A program made the translations under genes and the position numbers. DNA of 64,000 nt from Astropecten irregularis (lineage: Eukaryota; Echinodermata; Asteroidea; Paxillosida; Astropectinidae). Positions 999 to 58,539 of this stretch are shown here, piece by piece. The stretch spans positions 2,604,001 through 2,668,000 of the forward strand of contig OZ020249.1 in the NCBI GenBank assembly GCA_963971285.1. Direction: 5' to 3'. The notes beneath the pieces were generated by a model. It was not told the origin of the DNA and did not search any database. It saw only the letters and a program-made list of their open reading frames with translations. How positions within the stretch are numbered: the first letter of the stretch is position 1; the number at the start of each line of letters is the position of its first letter.

Positions 999-1598
999 AG
1001 TTTTTGTTTAACCGTAACATCAATGTTCTTAATGTGAGCATATAGGATTTGCAAGACCTCAACAAGAAATATAAACAAGTATTGAGTTTGAGACAGAAAA
1101 TTTTATCAACAGTTAAACAGTGTAAACAGTGCAAACAGCTGGTCACCATGGGAAATCTTGGTTCATCAGATGCTGGGTTTTTCAAGGAAATCAAGATTTA
1201 GTGTCTTTTCCAAAGATCGTTCGTCCGAACGATTTTTGAAACAAACATAAAGGACACCCTCACTTGAATTGTTTTAGTTATCCCCTTTCACTCAAGGTAT
1301 GAAGATGGTGCTGGTAGAAACATACTGTTAAAATATTTCCACCTGAATTGCTGTATTTATCCAGAAATTAGTAATACAAAGACTGAAAACAGTTTTGATC
1401 TCGGGGGGTAAGATCAAAACCATTCTTCATGTTAATAAGAAAAATTGAGTCGGGTTTTCACTATTTTCTTGTGACTCAGATGTCCGATTGAGCTCAAATT
1501 TTCACAGATTTGTCATTTCACGTAGGCCTACATGTTTGATCAGACAAAGTGTGAGTGCTGTCCTGTGACCTTTACCAATCATGTATTGTACCTTTAGG
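998..1598 (+). mobile_element. TTAA repeat family A, full copy 1
   Basis: About 600 bp, non-coding. It shares with 16465-17045 and 32141-32665 the ordered blocks GAGCATATAGGATTTGCAAG, CACCATGGGAAATCTTGG, AAGATCGTTCGTCCGAACGA, TTTTGATCTCGGGG and GATGTCCGATTGAGCTCAAA. The other copies start TTAAAGGGAGCATA and end GTACCTTTAA, which suits a MITE with TTAA targets (Kolobok or piggyBac type; which one is inference). At 1521-1531 this copy carries GTAGGCCTAC where the others are shorter. Confidence 0.7.
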
Positions 1599-2160
1599 AA
1601 AAGATATTGTTTAAGACTTTCTGGAAAATACTACTGCTATATGGTTGGGCAGCAGGATATGTACAGCTCTAGGAATACAGTTTCAAAGTGATTCATCTTC
1701 CAATTCTACAATTCTAGTAAGTATGTAAATATCCTTCATGTACACACACACGCACGTGTGTAAACACCTGCAATCGTGGACCCCCTATTGTTCCTCTTTT
1801 GTTTGGACTTAAACTTTTTGGCAGCAGCTCCATTGGTTTTGTACATGCTTTCCAATCGTGGACCTTTTTCCAATCGTGGACCCTATTGTCCCTTTTGTTA
1901 TCAGTCCACGGTTTGAATGCCTATACAAACCCACACATACATATCCTGAATGTACACACACACATACATGTACTGTGTATTTTAGTATTAATTGGCCTGA
2001 ATCAATATCTCATTAGAGACAATACCAATTGATTACAGTATAATCATGTTTGGCCACAAGTACATGTATTCATTGGTACATCATGTACAAAGCACTGTGG
2101 CTCTGAGGTTTCATGCCCATTTAATTAAAATAACCAAGTTAGTCCTCAGGGGGCAACCAC
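1599..2160. other. Intergenic, nothing recognised
   Basis: Contains three near copies of CCAATCGTGGACC between 1770 and 1885 and several CA/TG-rich runs. No gene or element boundary is recognised. Confidence 0.4.
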
Positions 2161-2164
2161 TTAA

Positions 2165-4869
2165 CAGTCAGCGCACAGCCCCCGCTATAATGAGGCGCCC
2201 GCAAGCATTTGTTTGAAGGAAAAAACACTCTCGTGCGTTTTGGAGGTTTGCGAGAAAACACGAGAGTTCAGTAGTAACCCTGCAAAAGCTCTCGGGAAAC
2301 CTGGCAAGGTCACTGCTGGGCCATCATGGCGTGGTGAGTGCATTGTTTATGATTAAAGCAATGAAAAAAAATCGTTTTTTATCAGTTAATTTTTAGATTT
2401 TCGCGTGAAAAATAGCCCCAATGTGTGTCTTAATTCTCGAACAACGCTTGTAGTATCTTAGACGTTTTTAGTGCTCCTGACTGTTTCCGAAATGATACGT
2501 TGAAATGGTGACGATATTTGGCGAGATTGAGGTTTTCCCCATCGTTCAATATCAATAATGTTTCTACGGTGCGGAGTATTTATCTCATTTTTTACATTTC
2601 AAAACTGCGAGATTTGGTGGTTTAGCGTGCGATTCTGCTATGAATTGTGACGTCACATGTTTATTATTTATTTTTGCCATCCATTGACTTGTGCAACCAA
2701 TATCAGTCACCTAATGTGTGCCTTGCCTAAATACATATATATTTATATTTTTTTTATTACTTTATACTTTATATTTTGTACCGTTTACTTTCATGTGACA
2801 ATTAAGTGTATAGACATGGGTAAAAGTTTACCACACTCGTCTTGTATCCAGCAAGTATTAACTTTTTTGTTTATAAGCATGAGGTGTTAAAACCTTTACT
2901 CTTGACCAAAGATTGCCAAAACGGGTACTTGCCTAAACATGTATGCAATGTAAATGATGTCACATGTGATTACTTTTTTGTTTCTGTGTACAGTATTTAT
3001 AAATTTGCGTGTACTAGCAAGTGTAATTTGTGTTTATGCATATACATTTTCTGTTGTATTTAGATATTTGTACTGAAGATCTGTTTTAGTCTACATGAAG
3101 TCTTTGTGTTATAATTGATATATGTCTGAATACTGTATACATGTCTTAAAAATGTGTGTTCATTGTTATGCTTATTCTCAGGGTCCACATGGAGAAACAA
3201 AATGTGCTAATTTATCACTACTAAAGTTGTACAGCACTTGCAATAATATCATTTTTATTATGTAAGATTGATTTTTGTCTTATTTTGTTTACTAAATGTT
3301 TTAGAAAATGCCAATGGTTTCAGAACCAGTTAAGTAAATCAAGTGTGTGGACTAAAGTTGACAATTCCTCTATTTAACAAATATTTTCAACTTTTATTTT
3401 TTAAAGATGGTAAAAATGTTGAGGGGTGTTAAAATCTTGAATATTGCCCAAAGCTAGCCAAAAGGGGTACTTGCCTTGCTTAAACATGCCTACAAATGTA
3501 TACAATGTGATTATTTTGTTGTGTGTTGACTTCTATTTTTTGTTTGTATTATTTATAAAGTGGCGTTGCAATTTTGTTAATGTTTACTGAAATTACTTTA
3601 ATGTGTGTACTCAGTCTTTGTGCTATTAATATTATTGATATGTTTCCATTGTTACGTTCTCTCCCAGCCAGCTGAATGGAGGAACGGTTACAGTAACAGT
3701 TAACAAAACTGCCAAGTTTGTTGGTTTTCATGTTCATGTGTTATTGTGTTACAATAGGAATCAGTTGAAGAGCAGTTGAACTAATAAATGCTACACTATT
3801 GCCCAAAAGAAACAAAACTCTTGTTTTAGTCTTGTTCATGTTTAATGTTGTGGACCTTTGGATTGTGCCTTAACTTTTGAGAAAATGCTGAAGGTTGTAG
3901 TGGGAAAACATTCTCTTCCTCCACTGAGCAAGAAGTAAATGAGATCTTGTAAAAGGCAACATTTTAAATTTTATTAATTTTTAAAAAGTGGTGCACTTAT
4001 TTAACTTCGTAGGCCTACCATTCATAATTGTTTTCAAATAAATGCAACCCGAGGGCCTGGCCTCAGTCACACCCATATTAATTTACACAAAATTGCAGAA
4101 GACCCATTAAAAATAGTAGGCAAAAAATCAAGACCGTATTTAATAAACATCGATATTCTCATAACCATTTTTCTCAGGACAACGCTGCCACGTCTGTACA
4201 CACGGTTGTAGACGAATCGTCTGGTTGCTTCACGTGGCGAAGATTTGAACTGATTTTTGCGTATGGAGTCTGGGCATCAAACTTGATGTCGTTGCCTTGC
4301 GTACTGTACTGCAGTACATGATTGGCTGATATCCGAGGATAAATGACCTCCAACAACCAATTGACCAACCACAGCTGCGCTTCATTGAGGACGGGGTAGC
4401 GGGTTAAGACTCGTGTTTCGTTACATTTTTGGGAGGAGAGGGTGAACATTTTGACTGCTCCTGACTGTTTCCCAAAAATTGAAGCGTAGGATTTTAGATA
4501 ATGATGAAAAGGAATGTTTTCTCTACCGGTTCGTATATGGTTCATTTCTACGGGGGACTTGTGAGACAACATATGAAGACCATTTCTACGCCAGTTTTTC
4601 TTATACAAAAAGGCAAGTGGTTTTGCCGCTAAATCTCACGTAATGCATACATCCCAAACATGTTTTCATTTCAGAATGGAAAATTTACCTCTATACCCCA
4701 CATAATCCAATCCAATAATAAAAAAAAGACCCATTAGTATGGACGTTACGATCTTTTTAAAACGCGTACTCCGAGCTCATTATATATGCAAAGTCAGTCA
4801 GTGCCTGTCGGAATGTGCATACGTAGAAAACAAACGGAAGCTATTTGCAGTGGGCTGCGCGCTGACTGT
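2165..4869. mobile_element. 2.7-kb DNA transposon with TTAA target duplication
   Basis: Terminal inverted repeats begin CAGTCAGCGCACAGCCC at 2165 and end GGGCTGCGCGCTGACTG at 4869. Each is flanked outside by TTAA. The TTAA target fits piggyBac or Kolobok superfamilies; I cannot tell which from the ends. A 130-bp block at 2880-3010 recurs diverged at 3418-3560 inside the element. The only long open frame is at 4174-4608 on the minus strand. No DDE catalytic triad was recognised, so the element is probably non-autonomous or decayed. Confidence 0.7.
4174..4608 (-). CDS. Unidentified open frame or exon inside the TTAA transposon
   Basis: An open frame of about 144 codons ending in TGA. The 5' codon of the frame is TTG; the first ATG is about 11 codons in. 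A TTTAG acceptor-like site lies just upstream on the minus strand (around 4630), so it may be a terminal exon rather than a whole gene. The middle (RYPVLNEAQLWLVNWLLEV) looks like real protein rather than simple sequence. I do not recognise the family. It lies wholly between the TIRs at 2165 and 4869, so transposon cargo or a transposase piece is the simplest reading. Confidence 0.35.
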   Translation of the reverse strand: MYKKNWRRNGLHMLSHKSPVEMNHIRTGRENIPFHHYLKSYASIFGKQSGAVKMFTLSSQKCNETRVLTRYPVLNEAQLWLVNWLLEVIYPRISANHVLQYSTQGNDIKFDAQTPYAKISSNLRHVKQPDDSSTTVCTDVAALS

Positions 4870-6156
4870 TAAGTAAGTAATCGGACACTGCCAGATGAAG
4901 GTTTGTCAAAAAATACATTAAGGGTATGTTCAGATGAGGGGCTGGCTTCAGGGAGTGGGTTGTGGTTAATTGATGCCCACAGCAGGGGTTCCAGTACTTG
5001 ACCACAAACTCCAAAATCACCAAGTTCATATGATATCGGTAACTCCAGGACTGGGGGCCACAGCAGGGCTAGAAGGGTTGGAAATGCATTATGGAATTCA
5101 GTTGAGGACAAATAACACTTCCCATTCCTACATGTATATGTTCCACAGGCTTGTCAGTGTCTGTGGGATCGGGGCTAGGTCAGTTGTGTCCAAATGATAA
5201 AAGTAGGTGGTGTCAAGTCGTAAAATAACCCTCACAGGGCATGGTACTAGTGGGGTTAGTCCCACAAATTTATGACCCGAAGTTAGTCCCAAAGTGCTGA
5301 AAAATTGTGTCCCAAGGAGGACTTTTGTCAGTGGGACTATCCCCATTCGAGAGTTCTCCCGAAACCAACACCTCGTATGAACTAACCTTAATCAGTAGTA
5401 ATCTTAATACCATAAGCTTAATCAGTAGGCCCTACGTACACTATGGTTCGTACATGTACATGGAGCTGTAGCTCAACCAAAATGCATTTTCACACTGCAC
5501 CAATTCCCCAGGGAATTCCCAAGAGAAAGAGTGACATATCCTTACTGGCCACCACCAAAGGAATACCGGTAACTGAAAATACACTTGACATGTTTTTACG
5601 TAAACAATTTTCCTTTCAATACCTTTCATCACTACCATAATTTCTTCAAGTATTAAGCAACATGCACTATACAATGTTTGCCTGATAGCATGTCCCTTGA
5701 CACAATATTCTCACCAGACTGCATGAAAGCCCTTGTACCTCACTACAAGAGAAAACAGATATTGCTCTGAAAAGTAAACATCAGACAGCAGGTTTAACCC
5801 CATATCATTATGTTCCCTTGATGACAGCCATTTAAAATACATAAACTCACTACTGAGACTAGCTGAGTGTTGTTGAATCAGCAGCCCTAGAGGTTTACAT
5901 GTATCCGAGTCTTATTCAGGTTTATTCCATTTGTGAAATTCCCCTGACATGGGAAAGCTCGATCGGGTTTCTTGTTTTTGTCAGAGACTCTTTCACTATG
6001 ACTGATTTGGTTTGGGGCACTTATAAACCCTATACCAAAAAGTTGTAAAGTCAAACAATTCAATGCAATCTTTCCTTTATACAATGTACATGTACATATA
6101 CATGTATATGTTATACACATTAAGATTTTCACTCTTTTACCTAACAGCTAATGTGC
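4870..6156. other. Intergenic with one interspersed repeat piece
   Basis: 5178-5290 matches 42541-42650 (shared CAGTTGTGTCCAAATGATA, GTAGGTGGTG and AGTCCCACAAAT blocks), so a small dispersed repeat is present. The rest shows no gene I can support; the short open frames overlap each other on both strands. Confidence 0.45.
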
Positions 6157-6164
6157 ATTACATG

Positions 6165-8227: not shown

Positions 8228-8900
8228 TTAATTGGCTTTTCCGAACTTGATAAGAAAAGGTATTGTTTTTGTTCGGATAATTTTTTCCACGTCTTCTTGT
8301 AGTTTTTCTTTTTCCATAGACTTTGCACATGTTTTTTTTTCTCGAGCTCACTTTTCGACAGTGATCTGAACAAAACTTGGGCAAAACAAAGTTCCTATGC
8401 TACAGTGTATGTGCACCAAACATTTATATCATGAATGACGTCATCGTGTGTCACGTGACAAGCCTTAAAGGGGCAAACTTTACACATCAATTTTGAACGA
8501 ACCCTGGGTCCGAAGGGGTTGAAACTTGGTATGTACATGTATCTAAGTCGAGAAGTGTTATATTGAAAGTTTGCACTTTCATAGTTTGCACTTTCATCCT
8601 CTATTTTTATGATTTATTGAAATTTTGCGTCATTAAAGTTCTTTTAACGATATCTAGTGAACGAAACAAGATATCTTACATTTTCTTTTTGATTACTCTT
8701 AAGAATAACATAGATGAACACTGAGTAGACGAAAATACTGTGACATCATCATAAATGCAAACAAAAAATACATCAAAAACACATACACTGTACCAGTAAA
8801 AGGGAATGGCCGACTTGCCTAGAAATTTGGTGGTTTGGTGAAATATATGTTGGAAATTTAAATTTTGAAGTTACGTCATGATGATATCATCACTTGAATT
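8228..8900 (+). mobile_element. Helentron-like repeat family C, copy 1
   Basis: Starts TTGGCTTTTCCG and runs through AGGTATTGTTTTTGTTC, a pyrimidine-rich stretch, CATAGAC, then blocks with GACGTCAT repeats. The reverse complement of 30250-30955 has the same order. Compared with that copy, this one carries an extra CATGTA at 8535-8540. Assignment to Helentrons is by resemblance to the 12336-13588 family; I did not find its 3' hairpin. Confidence 0.5.
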
Positions 8901-9223: not shown

Positions 9224-9226
9224 TTA

Positions 9227-10287: not shown

Positions 10288-12335
10288 GTGGTCTCGAGTG
10301 AGATTTATTCCTAAAACAGTGGAAAATCAAATCCAAATCTGTTCAGGTACAGTACATATGTATAAAAGCCATGGCCTTAACATGGAACAAAAGTACCTCT
10401 AATAAGTAACAACTATCATGAACATGATGAACACACCAAACTCAGGAACATGAAATTCAGATTAATGCAGATTTGACTGCTGTACAGAAAGCTGTCTACA
10501 AATATTGTACAATGATACATGCTATATTCTCTGAAATTATTTGAGCAATCTTGACTGATAGATAGTGAACAAAAGTCATAACAACATTCGTGCACAGAAA
10601 TCTGCGAAGTAAATACATGTGCTTTGTTTCCTTATTATACTACATAGTTCCCAGCATTAACAGTGTTTAGTCCAAGACAAACATGCACGCCCAGCAATCT
10701 GATAATAAAGTGCTAAGACTGTTTACAGACATGGAGGGAGTTGTACAATTGCACACATCTAGGCCTACCCAATAGAGACAGTGTTTGTACCATGAACTGC
10801 TTGTAACTTTGGCACACATACAGACTCACTCTACAGAGACTAGTATATAAAAAATGCTGGGTAGTCGTGCCAGCACACAATTTGCCCAATGTTGTTTCTG
10901 AAAAACGGCCACCATACCCTGTGCCAACAAAAACTCAGAGAATTGAGTATGTGCATTGCTACAATCCCCCATTGGATCTCCAATATCTGTGATTATCTTT
11001 GCATTAATGGCAATGACCCCAAAATTCACTGGGAGAATTCTCACCAAGTATGAAAGAACGGTGTTTGCATCTTCACCGATGAACCATCATTGGATCTGAC
11101 AGTGAATCCAATGGTGGTTCACATGTGGGCCTACATTAAACCTTTCCTACATTGTATCTTCACAAGTAAACCATACACGGCGATGGATAGTGACACTTTC
11201 TCTGTTGTTGTGTGCAGCCACCTACAAACAACTCAAAATGGGTTTTCTTCAATGACATGGCCGGCACATACACTGTACATATGTAATCACAGTGGCAAAG
11301 TTGTATGAGCTGTAGCTAGCTAGCTGGATGAGTACCTGTCATGACGTCACATCCCAGATGCGGACAGCGCCCGCCACAGCAGTACATATCATGGTCAACG
11401 GTTGAATAAGCCCAACTTTTGAATAGTTAATCATCCTTTTTCATTTATACTTTCCCTAATGTTAGTGGCTGAAATTTGACAAGATTTGGCACCAATTTAG
11501 TCTGATACACTTGACAAATAAACTGATTGTCCTTTTTTTTTTTAGAGAATTATGACCCCGTTGGACTAGGGCTTTAAATAACCTTTAGTTTTAATTTTCT
11601 TCCATTGCTCCACACATGATGTAGTCTATGTGATAAACCATAGAATAAGACACACTTGTCATACTAGCAAGTGAACGTTTATCACATGCTTGCAGATTTC
11701 CTGATTACTTACATGTATGCGAGCCAACCCAGCACTGACCTCTCTAAGTTTTGACCTAACAAAGGGCATCTACTATCGTACTGTATGGCGAGTGCGTCTA
11801 TCACGAAGATACATGGTACATGTAGCTGCTGTCGCGCGGACATCTTCCGTCATGATCCTAACGGAAATGTTCTCAAAACAGATTTGATTGGCTGATGTGC
11901 AGCGTTGCATAAAATTTGCATGCACGCATGTACTAGACGTTCGTACGTAGTGACACGGAGTAGAACGGGTGATACACAGACTACACATGATGAAGATCTA
12001 CATGTACATGTACATGTAACTGTAAACGTGGCATACACAAGTACTGTACTGTATGTGGATCAAATCCTTCTACATGGACCTTATCGAAGATAGCCTGTTT
12101 TCCGCGCTGCGCGTGCACGCGCAAAGGACAGTGGGTAACATTGGGTTTAAAAGTTTTACCACACGCGTCGACATGCGTATATTCGTATAGCTGCCGGCTC
12201 GCGAAGTTTAAAGTTGTCTTTTTTCCTAGAAGAAAGCCTTGCTTTGAGTTGTTATACATAACGATGCTGCACAACGGTCCATGGAATGTTACTGTCGAGT
12301 CACTTGTTCCAGCGGTGTAAAGTTGAGTACCGGTA
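10288..12335. other. Intergenic, nothing recognised
   Basis: No supported gene. It contains short (ACATGT)n runs, for example at 12000-12018. Overlapping small open frames on both strands show no domain. Confidence 0.4.
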
Positions 12336-13588
12336 CTTATTAGCTGTTTCGCATGCAGCGGAACAGCTTTTGTTTTTCTTATTTTTTTTTTTCTTTTTAT
12401 TTTTTCTTTTTTTTTATTCCACTTTTTTCCCATAGACATAACACAGGGTCTTTCTACAAGTCACTTCTACCCTTATGCCAGTTCCGATCAACTTCATACT
12501 TGGCACATAGTTAGACCACCACCCCAGGTGCAATGCCGAAACATTTCGTCATCATGACGTCATCACGTGCACCATGACGTCATCATAAAAGTGCAAATTT
12601 CAGGGCTATTTATCTCCGGAACTGCAAGTCCGATGCAACTCAAACTTGGTATACAAGTATATGGGGACGTGTTTTACACAAAAATTGCAGTCACGTGTTG
12701 ATGACGTCATCGTGCGATTTTATACGAATTATTCAATTTTTGGACCTTTTCTTTATATCTCATGAACGACAAATCGTATTTTCGAAATTCTTTTGTCAAA
12801 ATGTTTGTTAGGCTATAGGCACATGCCACAAAATACCAAAAAGTGGTGACGTCATGATGACGTCATCAAAAAGCTGATTTTCTGATTCACGTATAAGGGA
12901 ATATCCGATGGTGATGAAACTTGGTGAATAGGTAGGGAATGGCACTAGTATCCTAAATCTGAAGTGACGTCACGATGACGTCATCGGCTGATTTTTTATT
13001 GATTTTTGAATATTTAATTTTGTCATTTTTTCCCAGAAAGACATATAAGCGTATATCCGATCGTAATGAAACTTGGTGGGTAGGTACGAAATGGTATTAG
13101 TATCCCTAATGTGAAGTGACGTCACAATGAGGTAATCGCCTGATTTTTTATTGATTTTTTTTTACAATTAATTTTGCCATTAAGAGTCAAACCTTAACAC
13201 AAAACACGGGCTTTGGAACTTTTTGGACCGCTGATATGGCTATCCATAGTAGTAGTGGGCCAATTGTGTACAGGTAAACGTAGCACGACGAGTCATTTTG
13301 CTGTTTCCACCGTCCATAAGCACAACCATACATACTATGTGCGCTGGCCTATAGTAGACTGCCATTTCTGTGTTTCTCATCGCCGTGTGAATGTATCTGT
13401 ACTAACGGTATACGTGCATTGATTGACGAGTGACGACGCTCCAGGTACATGTAGTTGTTTAGGACAATTAAGACACCGCTGATAAACTATTTCTCTGTAC
13501 TGGGCCAATTGTGTACATATGTTTGTTTCGTACATTTTATAAAACATACGCGAAACAGCTCAGTGTTTGTACACAAACACATGTCTAG
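12336..13588 (+). mobile_element. Helentron-like non-autonomous element (HINE), copy 1
   Basis: The 5' end carries AGCTGTTTCG at 12342-12351. Its inverse CGAAACAGCT is at 13551-13560, followed at once by a hairpin (GTGTTTGT / ACAAACAC) and CTAGTT. Subterminal asymmetric inverted repeats plus a 3' hairpin are the published Helentron/Helitron2 layout, and central tandem repeats are typical of HINEs. Here a ~152-bp unit containing ATCCGATCGTAATGAAACTT is repeated (ACTTGG at 12919 and 13071). The copy at 26633-28039 has the same layout. No Rep/helicase coding is present. Confidence 0.65.
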
Positions 13589-13972
13589 TTTATAGTTGAA
13601 TTTTCATGTCCATACGTTTTATGCACTCAGCGCCAGCCCTAACAACCCTGCGTTTCCCAGAGTGCTTTGCGCACAGCCAATTTTTGGCTATCTCCGATAA
13701 GGTCCATGTAGGTTGATCACAACCTCAGAATAAGATCAGATCCTCCATTGTAAACACGATGCCAGTCACGCTGGGTATCTGAATGATTCAAATCTGCCTA
13801 TGGCTCTATCATCACTGTACAGTAATACAGTATTATCACACCCCTATGTACCCCAGGCCAGGATCCTGTACAAGATTACATGTATCTCCTTTCATGCTTT
13901 ACATCACACACAGCTAGGGTTTCTGCTGTAATGTGTTGATCTTCAACACTGCACCAACAAACTCAAACACCA
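13589..13972. other. Intergenic
   Basis: 13715-13770 has GATCAGATCC and TGTAAACACGATG words related to the Harbinger-type MITE at 8991-9223, probably a remnant. Nothing else is recognised. Confidence 0.4.
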
Positions 13973-14392
13973 CGTTCAGACTAGGTCTGTAGGTCACGAT
14001 TATCGTGGAAAGTCCTGATATTGGGGTTCCCCTGCAAAGGGTTCCCCTGCAAAGGGTTCCCCTGCAAACCCATTGTGTGGACGCTTGCTGGGAATTCCTC
14101 CCTTGCTCCTGCCAAACATGTTGTGTTTGGAGACAATTTTGCAGTTAGAGGCTCGAATTGCCATGACCAGCTGTTTTCCAAATAAGTGTGCAAGTGCTAT
14201 TACATGTAAAAGCACCAGAGCCATAACCAAACATCCATGAATTGTCCCCAGAAAGCAGACCATAGAGCTACAAGCAGTTTGTAGCCCTACATGTTTGAAC
14301 ATGTACATGTACAGTGTAGACAGTCGGTTAAAGATCAGCCGCCTCCAAACTGCCCCCGATAATCACGACCTACATGTACAGTAGTCTGAACG
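13973..14392. mobile_element. MITE with ~35-bp imperfect inverted ends
   Basis: The left end reads CGTTCAGACTAG then GTAGGTCACGATTATCG. The right end, reversed, reads CGTTCAGACTACTG then GTAGGTCGTGATTATCG. The right arm has an extra CATGTA relative to the left. Inside, the 14-bp unit GGTTCCCCTGCAAA occurs three times in tandem at 14026-14071. No clear target duplication was found. Confidence 0.55.
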
Positions 14393-16464: not shown

Positions 16465-17045
16465 AGGGAGCATATATGATTTGCAAGGCTTCCAAAAAAA
16501 TTTATTGAGTTTGAGACAGAAAATGGACTAACCAGTTAAAAAGTCACCATGGGAAATCTTGGTTCATCAGATGGTTGGGGTTTTTTTTCAAAGAAATCAA
16601 GATTTAGTGTCTTTTCCAAAGATCGTTCATCTGAACGATTTTTGGAACAAACATAAAGGAAACCCTCACTTGAGTTGTTTTAGTTATCCCCTTTCACTCA
16701 AGGAACATGTACATGTACATGTATGAAGATAGTGCTGATGTAGAAACCTACCGTTAAAATATATCCACCTGAAAAGTGGAATGCTGTATACATCCAGAAA
16801 TTAGAAAAACAAAGACCGAAAACAGTTTTGATCTCGTATTCTCGGGGTAAGATCAAAACTAGTCTTCATGTTTTAAATCAGAAAAATTGAGTAGGGATTT
16901 TGGCTATTTTCACGTGACTCAGATGTCCGATTGAGCTCAAATTTTCACAGGTCATTATTTCATGTACATGTTTGATCAAACAAGGTGTGACTGTGAGTGC
17001 TGTCCTATGACCTTTACCAAACATGGATTTACCTATCATGTACCT
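16465..17045 (+). mobile_element. TTAA repeat family A, full copy 2
   Basis: Flanked by TTAA at 16461-16464 and 17046-17049. It starts AGGGAGCATATATG and ends ATGTACCT. The blocks are in the same order as in copies 1 and 3. This copy carries an 18-base ACATGT triplication at 16704-16721 that the other two lack. Confidence 0.75.
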
Positions 17046-21492: not shown

Positions 21493-21970
21493 CGTCAACT
21501 CACAAACATTACGTCAACTCGAAATCGTGGCGTCAACTCGCAAACGTTGCGTCAACTCACAAACATTACGTCAACTTGCAAACATTACGTCAACTCGCAA
21601 ACATTGCATCAACTCGCAAACATTACGTCAACGCGCAACATTGCGTCCCAGCCGTCAACTCACAAACATTATGTCAACTCGCAATCATTGCGTCAACTCG
21701 CAAACGTTGCATCAACTCGCAAACATTACGTCAACTCGCAATAGCGTCAACTCGCAAACATTACGTCAACTCGCAAACATTACGTCAACTCGCAAACTTT
21801 GCATCAACTCGCAAACATTACGTCAACTCGCAAACATTGCATCAACTCGCAAACATTACGTCAACTTGCAAACATTACGTCAACTCGCAAACATTGCTTC
21901 TACACGCAAACATTACGTCAACTCGCAAACATTACGTCAACTCGCAATCATTGCATCAACTCACAAACAT
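21493..21970. repeat. 19-bp minisatellite, about 25 units
   Basis: The unit is approximately GTCAACTCGCAAACATTAC. Variants change ACG to GCG or GCA and CGC to CAC or TGC. Nineteen is not a multiple of three and the unit has no stop on the plus strand, so all three plus frames stay open across the array. Those open frames are therefore not evidence of a protein. Confidence 0.9.
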
Positions 21971-22399
21971 TTTGTGAATAATTCTGAAAAGTCTTATGTT
22001 TTCAACAGACAGACGGATTCGCCTAATTCAGTAATTGTTTCTGTTTTGCCTTTGATTTTTCCATCGTGTACGGCTTGAACGTACGTGTATCGCGTTCCTG
22101 GAATTCTCATACGGCAGCTGCAACATTTAAGTCACAGCTATGAGCACCAGTCTAAAACCATTGGTGTGCCACATCCTTCTAACACTTGTTACGGCTGGAA
22201 ATGTGTATACGCTAACCTTTGACCTTATTTTGATTTCTGTTAATTAACCCTAATTAAACGACTTATTTCTGATTTTTTTTTTCACGAAAACCTTCACCCA
22301 GTGTTCAAGAAATATTGTGTTATACTCTGCACTCTTCATTATTTTGGACTTTGAAGCCGGCGTGTACCTTTAATCACTTTTTGTTTCTTCTTCTTCTTA

Positions 22400-22470
22400 A
22401 TGTACATGTAAAGCGCCCTGAACATCTTTGATGGATTTGGCGCTATATAAGATTATTATTATTATTAAAA
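22400..22470 (+). mobile_element. L2/CR1-type LINE or SINE 3' tail
   Basis: GTAAAGCGCCCTGAACATC followed by GGCGCTATATAAGATTATT and an (ATT)n end is the characteristic 3' tail of L2-type elements and SINEs that use them. Only the tail remains. Confidence 0.65.
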
Positions 22471-24097
22471 AATGAATTGTGATGGACATTACATTTAAAA
22501 GACGAGAACTTTGTACTCTTAATATTTAGTTCAAAATCCCTGTGAATTGTACATGTACATGATTGTGTAAAATCCAACTAACTGCATGAGTGTATGTGGG
22601 TCAGAGCTTGCCAACTCAAAACGTAAACATTTCAAACATCGCATGGTTTATCAGAAATTGGACATTGAAACCTGTGACGGACGTTACGATTTATGTGACG
22701 GGCATTACAACCTGTGATATATCAACTAATGTATAATCCATTGACATTGGAGAATTAAGTTGGAGTTGAATATTCAAATCTGTCTAAACATACACGATGT
22801 AGCTCATCTACAGTCATACTACAGATTTATTAAGATGGGAATCTTACATTAATGCTTGTTTGTAAACCCCATAAAGAGCACTCAAACCTGAATTAGACAA
22901 ATTTATAAACAAAAAGTTGATTGTATTGGTCTATTTAACAAATGAAGAAGAAAGTGACTATTTAAACTACATGTGCATGTATCTGCCATATCAGTTAAGG
23001 CTAAAGTATCTGGTGAAATTAAGTGATTTGTTGAAAGGGTGCATAAATTGTATCCAAAAATTTTTTTTTAATAGAAGTTTTAGAATGCATTTGAAAACAA
23101 GTACACTGTACTACAAAAAAAGTAGGCTTAGAAGAAAGAATTTATGCGAATGGGAGCAATGGTGTGATATGGCCTCGGTATAAAATTCAACAATGGGTCT
23201 GAGTGGCATGTGTGCACCTCACATGCCGGTATTTAAAATGATTTATTTGGAATAAGCTTGATTCTGTAAAAGGAGGTCTTAAAATCTGCAAGAATCACAT
23301 TATTAAAGGTGGTACAGAGTACAGAGTGGTATCAAATGTGTATTTAGCCCCCCCCCCCCAAAAGGTGAGTCTAAGAATGTTTATTTTTACCCTCTTCGTT
23401 GACGCAAATGGTATTAATTTAGTTTCTGAAAAGAAAACAGAGCCATGTACATATGTAGTATGTACAATTATGTACATGTCTAAGAATTGTACTCAGACAG
23501 TACATGGTGTACACGAACACTCTGTACTGCACTCATTTGCATTGTATTTTCCCAATCCAATTTAGATCTGCAGCAACCTGAGCTGTGGCTGACCTTGGCA
23601 CTGGCAGGGCTTGCTTTAGAGCAAGGAGTTTTTTCCAATAAACATGAAAAAGACCTTTGTGCATGGTTGGCTTAACCCAACCACAGAAGGACTTGTTTAC
23701 AACTTGGGACCAGGTTAAAGGCATTCAGAAATGAAGAATTGTCTTTCATTAAAAGATGTCACGGTAACAAATTTACACGTACATTATGTACATATATCCT
23801 GTATGTACATGTACATATGGTATATATGTGCAACTTAGACCGGATTCCCATCTGTTTTGAAAAAAGGGCAGATCAAGCTCCAGCATTATTATCTAAATGC
23901 AACAAAGTTGCAAGTTGCATTCCCACTTGCATGTGCTCTGTACACTTGCAGCATTGCCAGATGTCGCTGGGTCAAATTGCTGGATCTGATCCACCAATTG
24001 GGGGATCTTTATCCTGGGCCAGAGGAGGATCAAGAAAGGTGGATCAGATCCTGATGACCTGATCAACCATTTTGCGGTAAAGTGTTTCCAATACACG
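22471..24097. other. Intergenic, nothing recognised
   Basis: Contains a C-run at 23350-23360 and, at 23970-24060, GATCAGATCC words that look ancestral to the satellite that follows. No gene is supported. Confidence 0.4.
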
Positions 24098-25175
24098 CTC
24101 GATCCACCAATTGGGGGATCTGCTCGATCCACCAATTGGGGGATCTGCTCGATCTACCAATTGGGGGATCTGCTCGATCCACCAATTGGGGATCTGCTCC
24201 AGCCACCAATTGTGGGATCTGCTCGATCCACCAATTGTGGGATCTGCTCGATCTACCACCAATTGGGGGATCTGCTCCAGTAACCAATTGGGGGATCTGC
24301 TCGATCCACCAATTGGGGGATCTGCTCGATCCACCAATTGGGGGATCTGCTCGATCCACCAATTGGGGGATCTGCTCGATCCACCAATTGGGGGATCTGC
24401 TCGATCTACCAATTGGGGGATCTGCTCGATCCACCAATTGGGGGATCTTCTCCAGCCACCAATTGGGGGATCTGCTCGATCTACCAATTGGGGGATCTGC
24501 TCGATCCACCAATTGGGGGATCTTCTCCAGCCACCAATTGGGGGATCTGCTCGATCTACCAATTGGGGGATCTGCTCGATCTACCAATTGGGGGATCTTC
24601 TCCAGCCACCAATTGGGGGATCTGCTCGATCTACCAATTGGGGGATCTGCTCGATCTACCAATTGGGGGATCTGCTCGATCTACCAATTGGGGGATCTTC
24701 TCCAGCCACCAATTGGGGGATCTGCTCGATCTACCAATTGGGGGATCTGCTCGATCTACCAATTGGGGGATCTTCTCCAGCCACCAATTGGGGGATCTGC
24801 TCGATCTACCAATTGGGGGATCTGCTCGATCTACCAATTGGGGGATCTGCTCGATCTACCAATTGGGGGATCTGCTCGGTCCACCAATTGGGGGATCTGC
24901 TCGATCCACCAATTGGGGGATCTGCTCGATCCACCAATTGGGGGATCTGCTCGATCCACCAATTGGGGGATCTGCTCGATCCACCAATTGGGGGATCTGC
25001 TCGATCCACCAATTGGGGGATCTGCTCGATCTACCAATCGGGGGATCTGCTCGATCCACCAATTGGGGGATCTGCTCGATCCACCAATTGGGGGATCTTC
25101 TCCAGCCACCAATTGGGGGATCTTCTCCAGCCACCAATTGGGGGATCTTCTCCAGCCACCAATTGGGGGATCATC
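24098..25175. repeat. 25-bp satellite, about 43 units
   Basis: The unit is close to GATCTGCTCGATCCACCAATT plus GGGG and contains the palindrome CCAATTGG. Three variants alternate: CGATCC, CGATCT and TCTCCAGCC. The TCTCCAGCC variant recurs at 24451, 24526, 24601, 24701 and 24776, that is every 75 or 100 bases, then three times in a row at 25101-25151. One unit is a base short near 24190 and one has a 3-base insertion near 24258. Long open frames on both strands come from the stop-free unit. Confidence 0.95.
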
Positions 25176-26352: not shown

Positions 26353-28134
26353 TAAGGCTGCAGTTTGTATCCGGTTAACCGACCGTTCAAAAGGGTACCC
26401 AGGTACATTTTCCCAGTTAGGTTAATCTTTTTAATGGCCTCTTCTTTTTGAAACATACCGGTAGACACTTCTAGAGTTCACAAAGAAAAAATGTCAATGA
26501 TCTTTTGAAAATTGGACCAGCAGGCAAATGCAAAGCAAAGGCCAAACATTTTGCTATGTCTACCACTGCCAAATGTTGTGACACAAGAATGTTGTCAACC
26601 AAGTTCCTAAAAGACCCAAACTTGCTATTTCTTTATTAGCTGTTTCGCATGCAGCGGAACAGCTTTTGTTTTTCTTATTTTTTTTTTTTTTTTTTCATTT
26701 TTTTTTTCATTTTTTTTTTTCCACTTTTTTCCCATAGACATAACACGGGGATTTTATGCAAGTCACTTCTACCATTATGCAAATTCCGATCAACTTCATA
26801 CTTGGCACATAGTTAGACCACCACCCCGAATAGTGTCTCGCGTATGTACGTCATCGTGACGTCATCACGTGCACAATTACGTCATCATAAAAGTGCAAAT
26901 TTAAGGGCTCTTTATCTCCGGAACTGCAAGTCCGATGCAACTCAAACTTGGTATGCAAGTATATGGGGACGTGTTATAGACAAAAATTGAGGTCACGTGT
27001 CGATGACGTCATCGTGTAATTTTATACGAATTATTCAATTTTTGGACCTTTTCTTTATATCTCATGAACGACAAATCGTAATTTCGAAATTCTTTCGGTA
27101 AAATGTTTGTTAGGTTATAGGCATATGCCACAATTTACAAAAAAGGTGTGACGTCATGATGACGTCATCAAAAAGCCGATTTTCAGATTCACATATAAGG
27201 GAATATCCGATGGTGATGAAACTTGGTGGGTAGGTAGGGAATGGTACTAGTATCCTAAATGTGAAATGACGTCACGATGACGTCATCAGCTGATTTTTAA
27301 TTGATTTTTGAATATTTAATTTTGCCATTTTTTCCCAGAAACACACATAAGCGAATATCCGATCGTAATGAAACTTGGTGGGTAGGTAGGGAATGATACT
27401 AGTATCCATAAAATGTGAATTGACGTCACGATGACGTAATCGGCTGATTTTTTTATTGATTTTTGAATATTTAATTTTGCCATTTTCCCCAGAAACACAT
27501 ATTAGCGAATATCTGATCGTAATCAACTTTGTGGATAAGTAGGAAATGGTATTAGTATCCCTAATGTGAAGTGACGTCATGATGATGTCATCGGCTGATT
27601 TTTTATTGATTTTTTTAATAATTAATTTTGGCCATTTTAGAATCAAACATAACACAAAACACGGGCTTTGGAACTTTTTGGACCGCTGATGGCTATCTGA
27701 GGTAGTGGGACAATTGTGCACACGTGAATGGAGCACGACGAGCTAGAAAATGAATCATTTTGCTGTTTCCACTGCCCATAAGCCCAAGCATACATACTAT
27801 GCACGCTGGCCTATAGTAGACGTGTGTATTGCCACGTGTATGTACATGTATCAGTATACATACATATGTGTGTATTGATGGACAACTGACGACGCTCCTG
27901 ATAGTTGTTAACGGCAATGAAGACACCACTGATTTGCTTTTTTCTGTACTGGGCCAATTGCGTTCATGTTTATTTTTCATATTATTTATAAAACATACAC
28001 GAAACAGCTCAGTGTTTGTCAACAAACACAGGTCTAGTTTTTCTTTGTTTTCTTTGTTATACGGGTAATCATAACCGTAACCGAAAAACAGACGGGTAAC
28101 CGGTTACAAAATTATTCGTAAACTTACAGCCCTA
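26353..28134. mobile_element. hAT-type element interrupted by a Helentron
   Basis: Left end TAAGGCTGCAGTTTG and right end, inverted, TAGGGCTGTAAGTTT. A perfect 8-bp duplication GTCGCCAC flanks it (26345-26352 and 28135-28142). The hAT's own sequence is only about 375 bp, because 26633-28039 is a later insertion. Confidence 0.75.
26633..28039 (+). mobile_element. Helentron-like non-autonomous element (HINE), copy 2
   Basis: Same family as 12336-13588. AGCTGTTTCG starts at 26638 and its inverse CGAAACAGCT is at 28000-28009. A GTGTTTGT/ACAAACAC hairpin and CTAGTT at 28034-28039 follow. Three ~152-bp tandem units are centred on ACTTGGTGGGTAGG-like words at 27221, 27373 and 27526. Many GACGTCAT palindromes are present. 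Confidence 0.65.
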
Positions 28135-32140: not shown

Positions 32141-32665
32141 AGGGAGCATATAGGATTTGCAAGGCCTCAACATTTTTTTATTGAGTTTGAGACAGAAAAT
32201 GGACTCAACAGTTCGTAAACAGTGCAAACAGTCACCATGGGAAATCTTGGTTCATCAAATGCTGGGTTTTTTAAGGAAATCAAGATTGTCTTTTCCAAAG
32301 ATCATTCGTCCGAACGATTTTTGGAATGTAAGGACACCCTCACTTGAGTTGTTTTATTATCCCCTTTCACTCAAGGTATGAAGATGGTGCTGGTACATGT
32401 AGAAACATACCGTTAAAAATTCCACCTGAAATGCTGTATTTATCCAGAAATTAGTAAAACAAAGACCGAAAACAGTTTTGATCTCGGGGTAAGATCAAAA
32501 CCATTCTTTATGTTTTATAAGAAAAATGGAGACAGGTTTTCACTATTTTCTTGTGACTCGGATGTCCGATTGAGCTCAAATTTTCACAGGTTTACTATTT
32601 CATATGTTTGATCAGACAAAGTATGTGTGCTGTCATGTAACCTTTACCAATCATGTATTGTGCCT
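32141..32665 (+). mobile_element. TTAA repeat family A, full copy 3
   Basis: TTAA at 32137-32140 and 32666-32669. Starts AGGGAGCATATAGG and ends TGTATTGTGCCT. This copy has an extra CATGTA at about 32394-32401. Confidence 0.75.
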
Positions 32666-41349: not shown

Positions 41350-42952
41350 TATTATTACAGGTCAGCATCACAGGTGCTGGATTGAAGCAAGGAAGTGGCA
41401 AGACCTTTGATGTGGTGAAGGATAATTATGAGGCAAATACCAGCACCCGGGTAATCACATATAGTTTGCATCATACTTTTGCAGGGTCATTTAAGTACAG
41501 TTTAACCTGGTGATCCTTTGCCTACTGTGATAGTCCAACCTCCTCCCTGGAAAAAATAAATGTACATCTCTTCCTTACTCTATGTATAGATGAAGTCAAT
41601 CTACTTGAACTTTGAAGATAAAATGAGGCAAATTAAGTTTGTTTACGCTTTGTATATTGAGGACTTCAAACAAACTTGTGTAATGAAGTAATGAACCAAT
41701 TCTCATCTTCTGATTTTAAGCTGATTATCTTGTTACCTGGCAACATTTATTCAGCTAAATCAATTTGTTTGGAAGTTCCAATTACTTGATCATAGCAGGT
41801 TATGCTATATGACAAGGCACATGAATGACAGAAACTGAAGGAAACTGAAGGAAACCGAGGTGGAGCATTTTTCCCTTGTTGTAGACAAACACGGCTACCT
41901 CCTTAAATTCCACATATTGTTTTGTCATACCATTTATTTCCTTACAAGAAAATGAAATTAATAATAATAATAATATATATTTCTACTTATATAGTGCATA
42001 ATAATTACAGATTCTCTATGCGCTTAATATATTATTATCCCTCGTCATCGGGCCATAATTTACATTCCTGAAACTATCTCAACTCCTTGGGGAGTATACA
42101 GCCCCAGCTGCTGTATGCCCACAAAGGCAAATCAAACCACAAAGCCATCTCTACCTAGCTATCTCACAGATACCCATGTCTTGTCCATGTTGGTATTGTC
42201 TTATGCATGGAAGGTTTAGGCTATTAAAAACATACAATTATACAGATAAAAAGTCTTATCGACTGACACAAAGGAAAAGAGCAGAACATCACAATTAAAA
42301 ATGCATCACCAAACGACGATAGTTCATGGTCTGTTTAAGCTATCAATTTCAAGGGAAAGAGTAAAAATCAGAAAAACATAAAAAACAATATGTGGTGAAT
42401 CAGGAAAGATAGTTGGACCTACACATTTTCATCTAAGAGCAATTTTGTTCTAACTGACAAATAATTGGATGTACACAGAGTGAAAATCTGCAATGGATCA
42501 AGCAAAAAATACTTTTCCCTAAACTTGTTTACCATTAACTCAGTTCAGTTGTGTCCAAATGATACAAGTACATGTAGGTGGTGCTAAGTCTTAAAAGAAC
42601 CCCCACAAGGCATGTTAATGGGAACAGTCCCACAAATATCCCAGACTTAAAGGTAATATCATACTTCATAGAAAAAATATCAAGAAATATACACTTAACA
42701 ATCATCTGTGAAATTCCCAGTTTTCCTTGGGTTGTATTTCATACTTTCATGTTGAAAATAAAGATTCTCAAGTCAAACAATATCATGCCTACCTTACACA
42801 CCAACACACTTACAATGCAAGTGTAAAGAGACAGCATCACTAACTACACCTCAAATGTGTATGTTGTAGGATCCCCATTTCGATTTGAAGCAAGGCACGA
42901 GACTCAACTGACCATAGCTCTGTACCACCATATATATACATGTATGTATATG

Positions 42953-47146: not shown

Positions 47147-47460
47147 CAGGCGCGGTTCTACGGGGGGGCTAGGGGGGGCTGTTGCCCCCAAAAATTTTTG
47201 TCTAGCCCCCCAAAAAACATGCAAGTGAAAAAAAAAAATTCTTGAAAATACTGGATTTTGTTCAGTTATTAAGCGCCAATGACTTTAAAAAACGCGTTGT
47301 GTGGGCTATGTGCATGTTTTTCGACCCCTAATAAGACATAGCAGAAGCGAGTGTTAGAAGAACCCAAAATATTGGGTCTTCTAGCCCCCCCCCCCCCCCC
47401 CCAAAAAAAAATAATGGCTCTTCTAGCTCCCCCAAAATTTTGACTCTAGAACCGCGCCTG
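47147..47460. mobile_element. hAT-type MITE, 314 bp
   Basis: Ends CAGGCGCGGTTCTA and CTAGAACCGCGCCTG with a perfect 8-bp duplication CCCAATAG (47139-47146, 47461-47468). Contains G-runs and C-runs around GGCTAG words. A half copy is at 40125-40222. Confidence 0.88.
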
Positions 47461-47558
47461 CCCAATAGTCAATTATCTTTGTTCGTTTGCCGGTCAGAAG
47501 CCATGAAACCACGCACATACCGCCATACCCCAAGGATCGTTTCAGTGATACACACAGC

Positions 47559-47740
47559 CAGTGGCGTCACCAGACTTTTGAGTCTGGGGGGCACAAGCAA
47601 TTGTTGGGGGGGCACTACAATAATATATATTATATTTTTTTCACCCACCCAAATCTCAAATGGGGGGGGGCACGCAGGGGGGCACGAGGTTTTCCAGGGG
47701 GGCACGTGCCCCCCCTGGCCCCCCCTTGGCGACGCCACTG
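47559..47740. mobile_element. hAT-type MITE, 182 bp
   Basis: Ends CAGTGGCGTCACCAG and TTGGCGACGCCACTG, with a perfect 8-bp duplication CACACAGC (47551-47558, 47741-47748). The interior is GGGGGGCAC-rich. Confidence 0.88.
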
Positions 47741-47864
47741 CACACAGCAATGCTGCAACCTAGGAGCATGGGGGATCACTCAAAGAGGATACGGCTTTTT
47801 AATTAATAAAATCATCAAATAACCACAAGGGAAAATGACTGAATTTAAAGTAATTGAAAAGGTA

Positions 47865-49936: not shown

Positions 49937-50099
49937 TACAGGGTGTCCCAAAAAAAAACCTGCAACACTTGTGTCGAGAACTATTATATGAAAATTAAAC
50001 TGTTTATTACTGCAAGCTTCAGATATGTGATACAGCCATGTCTTGGCTATCAACGTGTAGAATTTGAGCAACGTTTTTTTTTCTGGGACACCCTGTATA
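49937..50099. mobile_element. Tc1/mariner-type MITE
   Basis: Ends TACAGGGTGTCCCA and TGGGACACCCTGTA with TA at both edges; 163 bp. CAGGGTGTCCC ends and the TA target are mariner-like. Confidence 0.8.
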
Positions 50100-52650: not shown

Positions 52651-52660
52651 TTTGTTTGTG

Positions 52661-55170: not shown

Positions 55171-55249
55171 TTGCATCCATCCGGAGGGCTCACCGACATG
55201 CTTCCACCCGGACAGTTGGGGCTCCCGGAGCCTAACACTGGTGTTCTTC

Positions 55250-56025: not shown

Positions 56026-56270
56026 CAGGTTCAGGTTTATTTCCATACTATTATAATGTTATTACATTGAGTACATTATAACAAGGTAAGATGATAGTAT
56101 GAGGAGGTCAGACAAGAAGCCGGAGCTTGTATACAAAGGTCTGCTCCCTTTACATTGAATAATAATGGTTACAATCATTATGATTAATTACGGGAGTTGT
56201 AGAATATAAATACATGTTGTTATAAAGCTAGAATCATATAACCTGTTTATTTAACTTACACACATGTACA
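56026..56270 (-). mobile_element. LINE 3' end with (CTGAAC)n tail
   Basis: On the minus strand this region ends GGAAATAAACCTGAACCTG, a short tandem tail of the CR1/L2 kind. It inserts exactly after the VDYRR codons of the gypsy fragment. Confidence 0.5.
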
Positions 56271-56394
56271 AAAGTAACAATGAATAATGTTACGTATTAC
56301 CGTATAGAAAAAGTGAAATAACTGCATCATGCAATCAATTTCATTTGTAGTATAATGATTAATAGGATAAAAGTTATTCATTTTTAGCATTAAT

Positions 56395-57640: not shown

Positions 57641-58147
57641 ATTCTTTAATGGGCGCATGGCACAATGTTCTTGTTTAAAAATGTACTTTGGATGTACTCT
57701 ATATCTTTGTACTCGAACTTGGCCCGTACTCGAACTCTGAAAAACTCAAACTCGTTTCTTTTTTGGCCCAGGACTCGATAAAAAAGTACTCGGACTCGGC
57801 CCTGTGTGTACTCTGGAAACTCGGTAATCAAATTTTGGGCTTCTTAGTCAGGAAGTGTTGTATTGAAAAATTGCAATGACGTCATCATGATTTATCATGA
57901 TTTATTAACATTTTTTTATCATTATTCTTTTAACAATATCATGTCAATGAAACAAGATATTTTAACAAAATCACTTTTGCTCTCTTTTTAAACAGACATA
58001 GATGTCTCTGTCTGTTTTTAGTTGATGTGTGGTTGCTTTTATTTGTCAATTATGATTAAAAACACAGGTTTTTTTTTGTAACGCTCCCCTTTTATTTTGT
58101 TATACATTCACAGTTACTCCAGTTTGATAAACCTAAGGTAGTTGGTG
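57641..58147. other. Upstream region of PYROXD1
   Basis: 57690-57800 has repeated ACTCGAACTTGG / ACTCGAACTC words. 57840-58010 is a piece of repeat family C (GGAAGTGTTGTATTGAAAAA, GACGTCATCATGA). The promoter is not recognisable. Confidence 0.45.
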
Positions 58148-58330
58148 ATGAGTATGGAGGATCCAAAGACATCTGATGAAGAGTACATGAACATAAACAA
58201 GTATGTTGTTGTTGGAGGTGGTATTGCAGGGGTAACTTGTGCTGAGCAACTGTCTGCCCAGTGTCCAGATGAAAAGATCCTACTCCTAACTAGTTCACCA
58301 CTCATCAAGGCAGTGACAAACTTCACAAAG
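58148..58330 (+). CDS. PYROXD1: PYROXD1, first coding exon
   Basis: ATG at 58148, with an in-frame stop at 58139; 61 codons to donor ACAAAG|GTATGA, phase 0. A second in-frame ATG is at 58154. The peptide contains [17 protein letters not shown] and [11 protein letters not shown], nearly identical to human PYROXD1 ([28 protein letters not shown]). The GxGxxG motif is the FAD-binding Rossmann fold start. PYROXD1 is a nuclear/cytoplasmic class I pyridine nucleotide-disulphide oxidoreductase lacking the usual redox cysteines; mutations cause human myopathy, and it is reported to protect the tRNA ligase RTCB with NAD(P)H. Remaining exons were not seen; intron 1 contains the DIRS element and probably runs past the window end. 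Confidence 0.93.
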
Positions 58331-58539
58331 GTATGATAATTGATACATTTAAAAGGTATAAGACTTCAGAACAATTTATATGGTACACCAAAGGGCAATT
58401 TCACCTAACTCATTGTAGGACAAACAGTAAATAATGCATCCCAGTGTTACAATCATTTGTAGCTAGGATGGATTTCATCATGCTAAGCAACATGTATTCT
58501 TTCGATACCTACATGTTCAAAATGCATTTCCAAATGTGC

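What the first reader, a model, noticed from the sequence alone, without database searches (positions are those of the whole stretch)
1521..58516. Paralogous repeat copies differ by clean gains of the palindromic hexamer ACATGT / CATGTA
Within-window comparisons show the same 6-base word added at unrelated places. Family A: 16704-16721 has three ACATGT units where 1295 and 32372 have none; 32394-32401 has CATGTA where 1311 has none. Family C: 8535-8540 versus 30640. Helentron copies: 13444-13453 versus 27899, and, in the other direction, 27843-27848 versus 13391. The two arms of one MITE: 14371-14376 versus 13990. The DIRS left end 58511-58516 versus its internal complement at 63150. Gains are 6 or a multiple of 6, occur in both members of pairs, and often fall beside TA or GTA. 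TACATGTA is also very frequent throughout. This suggests a process that writes or expands a palindromic hexamer, not simple point mutation. Ordinary microsatellite growth is the main alternative, but several sites had no pre-existing repeat to slip on.
Basis: seen in the sequence. Interest (0 to 1): 0.8.

Follow-up and report, generated by a model that had tools for sequence, protein, structure and literature searches.

The report
Six-base scars of jumping-gene excision
This animal-like genome carries a very large number of six-base gains in which a TA becomes TACATGTA or TAGGCCTA, which look like scars left when cut-and-paste jumping genes leave a TA site, so a word that could pass for a regulatory motif or a microsatellite is probably a fossil record of transposon traffic.

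Summary
TACATGTA occurs 82 times in the window against about 2 expected and 156,842 times genome-wide. Copies of repeats gain it as a clean 6-bp event, TA -> TA-CATG-TA. A second word behaves alike: TA -> TA-GGCC-TA (67,886 genome-wide against 5,378 for the reversed word). In 120 kb of random genome TAGGCCTA, TACATGTA and TACCGGTA lead the palindromic octamers seen at least five times. Of 57 collapsed 6-bp indels 11 duplicate TA (cores CATG 7, GGCC 3, TCGG 1); other sizes give 16 of 298. At 6 of 6 polarised sites most copies lack the word. At one family site with 5,764 matches, 97 of 100 listed copies have the empty length; of 21 with exactly +6, six are TACATGTA.

Best reading: excision footprints of TA-targeting, Tc1/mariner-like transposons whose terminal dinucleotides (CA..TG, GG..CC) stay behind. 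TACATGTA is a reported Tc1 footprint. The source element was not identified and one-sided scars are not enriched, so this stays an inference. Slippage, selection for a binding site and loss fit poorly.

The parts
32394..32401 (.). TACATGTA gained in a family-A copy (empty copies: GGTAGAAAC)
   Evidence: 7 of 7 other aligned copies lack the word, 6 with GTA; 97 of 100 listed genomic matches, all on C1, have the empty length; 6 genomic copies carry exactly this word here
16704..16723 (.). AACATGTACATGTACATGTA, an 18-bp gain (three CATG units) in a family-A copy
   Evidence: 7 of 7 other aligned copies have the short form
1523..1530 (.). TAGGCCTA gained in a family-A copy (second scar word)
   Evidence: 7 of 7 other aligned copies lack it, 6 with a 2-bp core and 1 with 1 bp
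8534..8541 (.). TACATGTA gained in a family-C copy
   Evidence: 2 of 2 other aligned copies lack it
13446..13453 (.).
   Evidence: 4 of 6 aligned copies have it, 2 more divergent copies lack it; polarity undecided
42569..42576 (.). TACATGTA versus TA at 5203; pairwise, polarity not tested
22403..22410 (.). TACATGTA versus TA in L007:7547; pairwise, polarity not tested
27843..27850 (.). TACATGTA in the second 1.26-kb copy; flank poorly alignable
14371..14378 (.). TACATGTA in one arm of an inverted repeat; read by eye against rc of 13990
58511..58516 (.).
49937..50097 (.). TA-flanked inverted-repeat element, TA|CAGGGTGTCCCA...TGGGACACCCTG|TA (mariner-like by recalled label): the kind of element that could leave CA..TG scars
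   Evidence: a third end with the same TATA flank in L004
12071..13710 (.). Element with TIR GGACCTTATCG[A/G]AGATAGCC, carrying a nested 1.26-kb repeat; tested as scar source and rejected (target AT, not TA)

Best explanation
The gained words are excision footprints. A cut-and-paste element of Tc1/mariner type inserts at TA and duplicates it. When it is cut out, the two terminal bases of each end stay behind and the broken ends are joined. An element with ends CA...TG leaves TA-CA-TG-TA, one with ends GG...CC leaves TA-GG-CC-TA, and a third with ends CC...GG would leave TA-CC-GG-TA. The palindrome follows from the inverted ends. Because each scar contains two TAs, a second visit gives period-6 arrays, including mixed ones. 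Some scars inside repeats were later copied with the repeat. Shown here: TA duplication, fixed cores CATG and GGCC, gain rather than loss, a symmetric target-site preference, and genome-wide scale. For CCGG only the word excess is shown, no gain was seen. Inferred: that an element's departure wrote them, and which element.
For: Indel spectrum: 11 of 57 collapsed 6-bp events duplicate TA (cores CATG 7, GGCC 3, TCGG 1), against 16 of 298 for sizes 3-5 and 7-12. TAGGCCTA, TACATGTA and TACCGGTA are the top three palindromic octamers among those seen at least five times in 120 kb of random genome (24 vs 0.8, 53 vs 5.5, 5 vs 1.0). Polarity: 6 family sites (7 copies with a gain) in 74 copies of 6 chosen families; at each site most others lack the word, and no row shows the reverse. 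One site in a large family: 5,764 pattern matches, 97 of 100 listed with the empty length, 21 with exactly +6 of which 6 are TACATGTA and 0 TAGGCCTA. Flanks of scars are symmetric and non-random: A at -3 (0.39 vs 0.27, n=240) for CATG, G at -1 (0.44 vs 0.24, n=93) for GGCC. One mixed array GGCC-CATG. Longer variants that keep a third terminal base on one side are in excess: TAGGGCCTA 9 vs 0.8, TACAGTGTA 15 vs 4.6. Literature seen: taCATGta named as a Tc1 excision footprint, citing Eide and Anderson 1988 (PMC3520976 passages); Minos leaves 6 bp (PMC10992017 passage); Passer leaves 0-4 bp, said to be similar to ZB and SB (PMC9976928 passage). Tc1-type HTH domains are present: 7 matches, 3 in open frames of 364-367 aa.
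Against: No element was caught filled in one copy, scarred in another and empty in a third. No abundant TA-targeting family with CA..TG or GG..CC ends turned up in up to 280.7 kb (the last left out L002, L004, L009 in its systematic part); the one clear TA|CA element has 3 ends there. Only 7 matches to the one Tc1 domain searched, very few beside some 10^5 words. One-sided scars expected from Tc1 are not enriched: TACATA 0.8x, TAGGTA 0.6x, TACAGTA/TACTGTA 1.3-1.4x; forms keeping three bases on both sides are 2 vs 1.1 and 0 vs 0.2. No gain of TACCGGTA was seen: the one such word in the TTAA family has the same core length in 17 of 20 other copies, so it arose by point change; a TACTGTA there likewise. 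At the family-A site 15 of the 21 copies with +6 carry other cores, and how many of these duplicate TA did not complete. The paper that names taCATGta a Tc1 footprint calls it rare, and rejects that reading for Phytophthora. A review passage prints the SB footprint as TAG(T/A)CTA, not the TAC(A/T)GTA that I recall; TAGACTA/TAGTCTA is only 16 vs 12.9 in the random sample. Two families tested as possible GG-ended sources do not give the expected scar words.
Confidence: 0.68

Rival explanations
1. A hexanucleotide microsatellite (TACATG)n that arises and grows by slippage.
For: Period-6 arrays exist, up to three full units in the window. Two-unit arrays (6, plus 1 triple, among 150) are somewhat more than the 2-3 that I estimate by hand for random revisits from the counts.
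Against: 143 of 150 CATG arrays and all 49 GGCC and 13 CCGG sites are single units. Gains start from a bare TA with no template. A second unrelated word behaves in the same way and a mixed array occurs. At the family-A site the word appears in 6 of 21 copies with +6 although the local sequence has no such repeat.
Confidence: 0.07
2. Another machine, not a classical transposon, writes the cores: for example an unknown TA-specific nuclease or recombinase with end-joining that inserts a fixed palindromic 4-mer.
For: No source element found; one-sided scars not enriched, so the product is cleaner than I would expect of Tc1/mariner repair; very few Tc1 transposase matches for so many words.
Against: Different cores at the same kind of site are naturally explained by different element ends. 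A fixed-core writer has no precedent known to me. Third-base variants hint at ends CAG and GGG.
Confidence: 0.15
3. Selection for a palindromic binding site (Iroquois/Irx homeodomains prefer TACATGTA) keeps new copies.
For: PMC3520976 states that Irx factors prefer TACATGTA, citing Berger 2008 (passage).
Against: The gains lie in repeat copies and are 6-bp insertions with TA duplicated rather than point changes; TAGGCCTA has no such role known to me.
Confidence: 0.03
4. Loss: the words are ancestral and are deleted between the two TAs.
For: A 2-bp direct repeat could support such deletion; at the 13444 site 4 of 6 copies have the word.
Against: Most copies lack the word at 6 of 6 polarised sites and 97 of 100 listed copies at the family-A site have the empty length. 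Deletion would not single out CATG and GGCC among all TA-N4-TA.
Confidence: 0.03

Closest known systems
Tc1 excision footprint TA-CATG-TA (Caenorhabditis elegans; Eide and Anderson 1988, cited in PMC3520976, seen as passages)
   Same: Identical word, TA duplicated; that two terminal bases of each end are retained is my recall of the Tc1 ends.
   Different: There called rare; here the word is present some 10^5 times, with a second core and perhaps a third, and one-sided forms are not enriched.
Minos 6-bp excision footprint (PMC10992017 passage)
   Same: Six bases added at the excision site of a TA-inserting Tc1-like element.
   Different: Minos ends are not CATG (recalled); no Minos-type source identified here.
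Sleeping Beauty / mariner 3-bp footprints (word TAC(A/T)GTA recalled; a review passage, prints TAG(T/A)CTA)
   Same: TA target; TACAGTA/TACTGTA is 41 vs 8.9 in the window by an order-1 model.
   Different: Only 1.3-1.4x by the order-2 model on 262 kb; core length 3, not 4.
TACATGTA motif-1 of Phytophthora promoters (PMC3520976, passages)
   Same: Same palindrome in large numbers.
   Different: Treated there as a transcription factor site; the footprint reading was considered and rejected.
Hexanucleotide microsatellites
   Same: Period-6 arrays.
   Different: Nearly all sites are single units gained at a bare TA.

Membership tests
Tc1/mariner excision footprint | TA target duplicated around the added bases | tested here: met
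   11 of 57 six-bp events, 16 of 298 at other sizes
Tc1/mariner excision footprint | Core is constant and independent of the flanks | tested here: met
   10 of 11 TA-duplicating 6-bp gains are CATG or GGCC; word ranks 1-3 among octamers seen at least five times
Tc1/mariner excision footprint | Event is a gain at an empty TA site | tested here: met
   6 of 6 polarised sites; 97 of 100 listed copies with the empty length; undecided at the 13444 site; not shown for CCGG
Tc1/mariner excision footprint | Core equals the terminal bases of a resident TA-targeting element | tested here: inconclusive
   A TA|CAGGGTGTCCCA element exists; no GG..CC source found; no filled/scarred/empty trio
Tc1/mariner excision footprint | One-sided and shorter scars also occur | tested here: not met
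   TACATA 0.8x, TAGGTA 0.6x, TACAGTA/TACTGTA 1.3-1.4x; single events only: CA 2 of 65 four-bp, CTG 1 and CGG 1 of 35 five-bp
Tc1/mariner excision footprint | Transposase of the superfamily present in the genome | tested here: met
   7 matches to PF01498, 3 in open frames of 364-367 aa; link to the scars not shown
Tc1/mariner excision footprint | Symmetric target-site preference around TA | tested here: met
   A at -3 for CATG, G at -1 for GGCC; GTAC favoured, 27 of 158 and 10 of 49 vs 0.057
Hexanucleotide microsatellite | New units copied from an existing repeat | tested here: not met
   Gains at bare TA; 143 of 150 CATG arrays are single
Irx binding site under selection | Enriched in regulatory DNA and conserved | not tested
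   No gene annotation available; the gains called lie in repeat copies by construction

The most novel reading that the evidence does not exclude
A TA-targeting cut-and-paste system that is nearly or wholly gone from the genome, or not of a described kind, has left invariant four-base palindromic scars at roughly one in one to two hundred TA dinucleotides, outnumbering the matches to the one Tc1 transposase domain searched by more than ten thousand to one. The genome then carries a readable history of past transposon visits after the transposons have left.
Probability: 0.3. Interest if true: 0.75.

Novelty: new variant of a known kind. Interest (0 to 1): 0.58.

Why it matters
If right, scars can be counted as events: number, age and target choice of past transposition can be read from dated repeat copies even when the elements are lost. 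It also warns that an over-represented palindrome such as TACATGTA need not be a regulatory motif; the Phytophthora motif-1, where the authors weighed and rejected a footprint origin (passages), could be re-examined with the empty-site test used here.

Tried and rejected
Source candidates: (1) the TIR element enclosing 12071-13710, found because its ends read TA|CATG; 568 genomic hits within 3 mismatches (269 + 299), and in the listed part the two bases before CATGG vary; two empty sites show an AT target; ATGGCCAT is not enriched, 12 vs 11.9. (2) The abundant AAGGTAGTATCATAC ends are TTAA-flanked by eye in the rows shown. (3) GGGCCTGTTTGTTT ends look Harbinger-like with 3-bp targets (label recalled); TTAGGCCTTA is 1 vs 0.32. 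(4) The Tc1-like gene on C1 (L049, L050): no exact inverted match of 11 bases or more between the two short flanks that I could fetch. (5) L008:2390-2472 hairpin: the repeat seems to continue past TA, not an end. (6) L005:5225-5306 may be part of a local repeat.

Considered and rejected: snap-back (polymerase theta) insertion, because cores are constant while flanks vary; general deletion between TAs, because it would not pick two cores. Pfam scan of five window ORFs (of 20 of at least 150 aa listed) gave no family. A search for TAGGCCTA with two other terms returned 23 papers; the 8 listed looked irrelevant by title and abstract start. The four-term search with TACATGTA gave one paper. Searches for another transposase family (PF13358) and for the genomic copy number of the CAGGGTGTCCCA element did not complete.
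Full report
Observation. In the window TACATGTA occurs 82 times against about 2 expected from dinucleotide composition. By gapped self-alignment four of the seven are clean (16704, 32394, 8535, 13444). Two (27843, 14371) fit by eye with poor flanks, and the DIRS site 58511 is a gain of ACATGT without a duplicated TA. The common form is TA -> TA-CATG-TA. A gain of a different word, TA -> TA-GGCC-TA, lies at 1523.

Is it more than chance, and is it only this word? Among words made of TA, four bases and TA, the window shows TACATGTA 82 vs 2.0, TAGGCCTA 16 vs 0.5 and TACCGGTA 6 vs 0.4. The window lies in a 475.7-Mb genome of 168 contigs. I fetched 13 random 10-kb stretches (7 further places asked did not exist) and later 30 loci of about 3 kb around one TIR. 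In the 12 random stretches left after dropping the satellite-rich L009 (120 kb), with repeated contexts collapsed and an order-2 model, the top three palindromic octamers among those seen at least five times are TAGGCCTA (24 vs 0.8), TACATGTA (53 vs 5.5) and TACCGGTA (5 vs 1.0). In 262.4 kb (window satellites masked; L009 and L045-L048 left out, and the overlapping L001, L020, L021, L035 left out) they are 46 vs 1.7, 127 vs 11.8 and 13 vs 2.0; there GCGCGCGC (7 vs 0.4) stands second in the list. Genome-wide TACATGTA occurs 156,842 times (its reversed word, 75,642, is itself part of the arrays and no clean control) and TAGGCCTA 67,886 times against 5,378 for its reversed word. Recurrent spacings (about 95, 167, 401 bp) among the 100 places listed suggest that part of these are carried along by repeat families. 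TACCGGTA was not counted genome-wide.

Indel spectrum. All-against-all alignment of 280.7 kb gave 99 six-bp gap sites before collapsing and 57 after collapsing similar contexts. Of the 57, 11 duplicate TA: CATG 7, GGCC 3, TCGG 1. For sizes 3, 4, 5, 7 and 8-12 the numbers are 6 of 77, 7 of 65, 2 of 35, 1 of 32 and 0 of 89.

Polarity. I chose six families (74 copies; the family names are mine). TACATGTA or TAGGCCTA stands at six family sites, in seven copies: TTAA MITE TAGGCCTA in 1, all 20 others lack it (18 with a 2-bp core); family A three sites, all 7 others lack the word at each (7, 6 and 6 with the usual short core); SINE-like repeat one site, shared by two neighbouring copies in L007, 7 other copies lack it; family C one site, 2 of 2 others lack it. 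The AT-target MITE (22 copies) and the 130-bp repeat (3 copies) had none. TACCGGTA occurred once, in a TTAA copy, at unchanged core length in 17 of 20 others, so by point change, not gain; TACAGTA is part of the TTAA family's common sequence. In the 1.26-kb repeat 4 of 6 copies have TACATGTA at the 13444 site, so polarity is open. At the family-A site GGTGCTGG..GAAACATAC the genome has 2,880 + 2,884 pattern matches with a gap of 2-16; of the 100 listed, all on contig C1, 97 have the empty length (of the 19 with letters shown 18 read TA and 1 CA), 2 are 2 bp longer, 1 is 9 bp longer, none is 6 bp longer (lengths read from coordinates). Exactly +6 is found at 21 places. Six of these are TACATGTA, on five contigs including the window copy, and none is TAGGCCTA; the other 15 were not read. 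Six in 5,764 is below the genome average per TA. Whether the six are independent or partly one lineage was not tested.

What it is. A duplicated TA around a fixed palindrome is the form expected from excision of an inverted-repeat element whose two terminal bases stay at each side: CA+TG, GG+CC, CC+GG. TACATGTA has been named as a footprint of Tc1 in C. elegans; I saw this as passages of PMC3520976 citing Eide and Anderson 1988; the original was not held. Minos leaves 6 bp (passage of PMC10992017); Passer leaves 0-4 bp, said to be like ZB and SB (passage of PMC9976928). Scar flanks show a symmetric preference (A at -3 for CATG, G at -1 for GGCC), as expected from choice of target. Variants keeping a third base on one side (TAGGGCCTA, TACAGTGTA) are in excess. 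Arrays are almost all single units (143, 6, 1 for CATG), and one mixed array GGCC-CATG occurs, which slippage would not make. Tc1-type HTH domains exist (7 matches, 3 in open frames of 364-367 aa), and a mariner-like element (recalled label) with TA|CAGGGTGTCCCA ends lies in the window.

What speaks against it. I did not find the source. One-sided scars are not enriched. Matches to the Tc1 HTH domain are few, and searches for another transposase family did not complete. The candidate first found by its TA|CATG ends was rejected. A review passage gives a different word for the SB footprint from the one I recall. The cleanness of the four-base product is therefore either a feature of repair in this animal, or a sign of a four-base staggered cut with self-complementary ends, or another machine.

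Scale. In the 262.4 kb, which are enriched by the word-rich window, there are 186 distinct-context sites of the three words per 18,794 TA dinucleotides, about 15 of them expected by chance. The genome-wide counts of the two main words, 0.47 per kb, are about two thirds of that density. So roughly one scar per one to two hundred TA. With transposition in the germline and neutral fixation over the age of these repeats such numbers are conceivable (inference, not computed from data).

Verdict. Real, not chance, mostly gain, broader than one hexamer; most likely transposon excision scars, on a scale that I did not see mentioned in the listings and passages my literature searches returned (few of those papers were opened).

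Noticed in passing
window 12071-13710; L015-L044: High-copy TIR element (GGACCTTATCG[A/G]AGATAGCC, often about 360 bp) with an AT target, 568 TIR hits within 3 mismatches; the window copy carries a nested 1.26-kb repeat.
   Followed up: partly
   Followed up: partly
L002:2780-6280: Very long, nearly perfect palindrome of about 3.5 kb in a random stretch.
   Followed up: no
G000:C1:13904396 and C1:14896220: Two Tc1-like transposase genes with identical scores and 364-aa open frames; their 421-bp 5' regions are 100% identical (rounded), about 1 Mb apart: recently moved or duplicated.
   Followed up: partly
L005, L006, L007, L008, L011, L013, L014: Abundant TTAA-flanked MITE with ends AGGTAGTATCATAC (often about 360 bp).
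   Followed up: partly
window 47147-47461 and 47558-47745: hAT-like insertions by eye (CAGGCGCGGTTCTA and CAGTGGCG ends, 8-bp target duplications cccaatag and cacacagc) inside a SINE-like repeat (labels recalled).
   Followed up: no
window 24097-25172 and 21493-21971: Tandem arrays of 25-bp (43 copies) and 19-bp (25 copies) units.
   Followed up: no
window, whole: TGACGTCA is in excess (30 vs 0.8), partly within the 1.26-kb repeat families.
   Followed up: no
window 16738 and 32396: A third family-A copy has GCTGATGTAG at the scar site, possibly a decayed or alternative scar.
   Followed up: no
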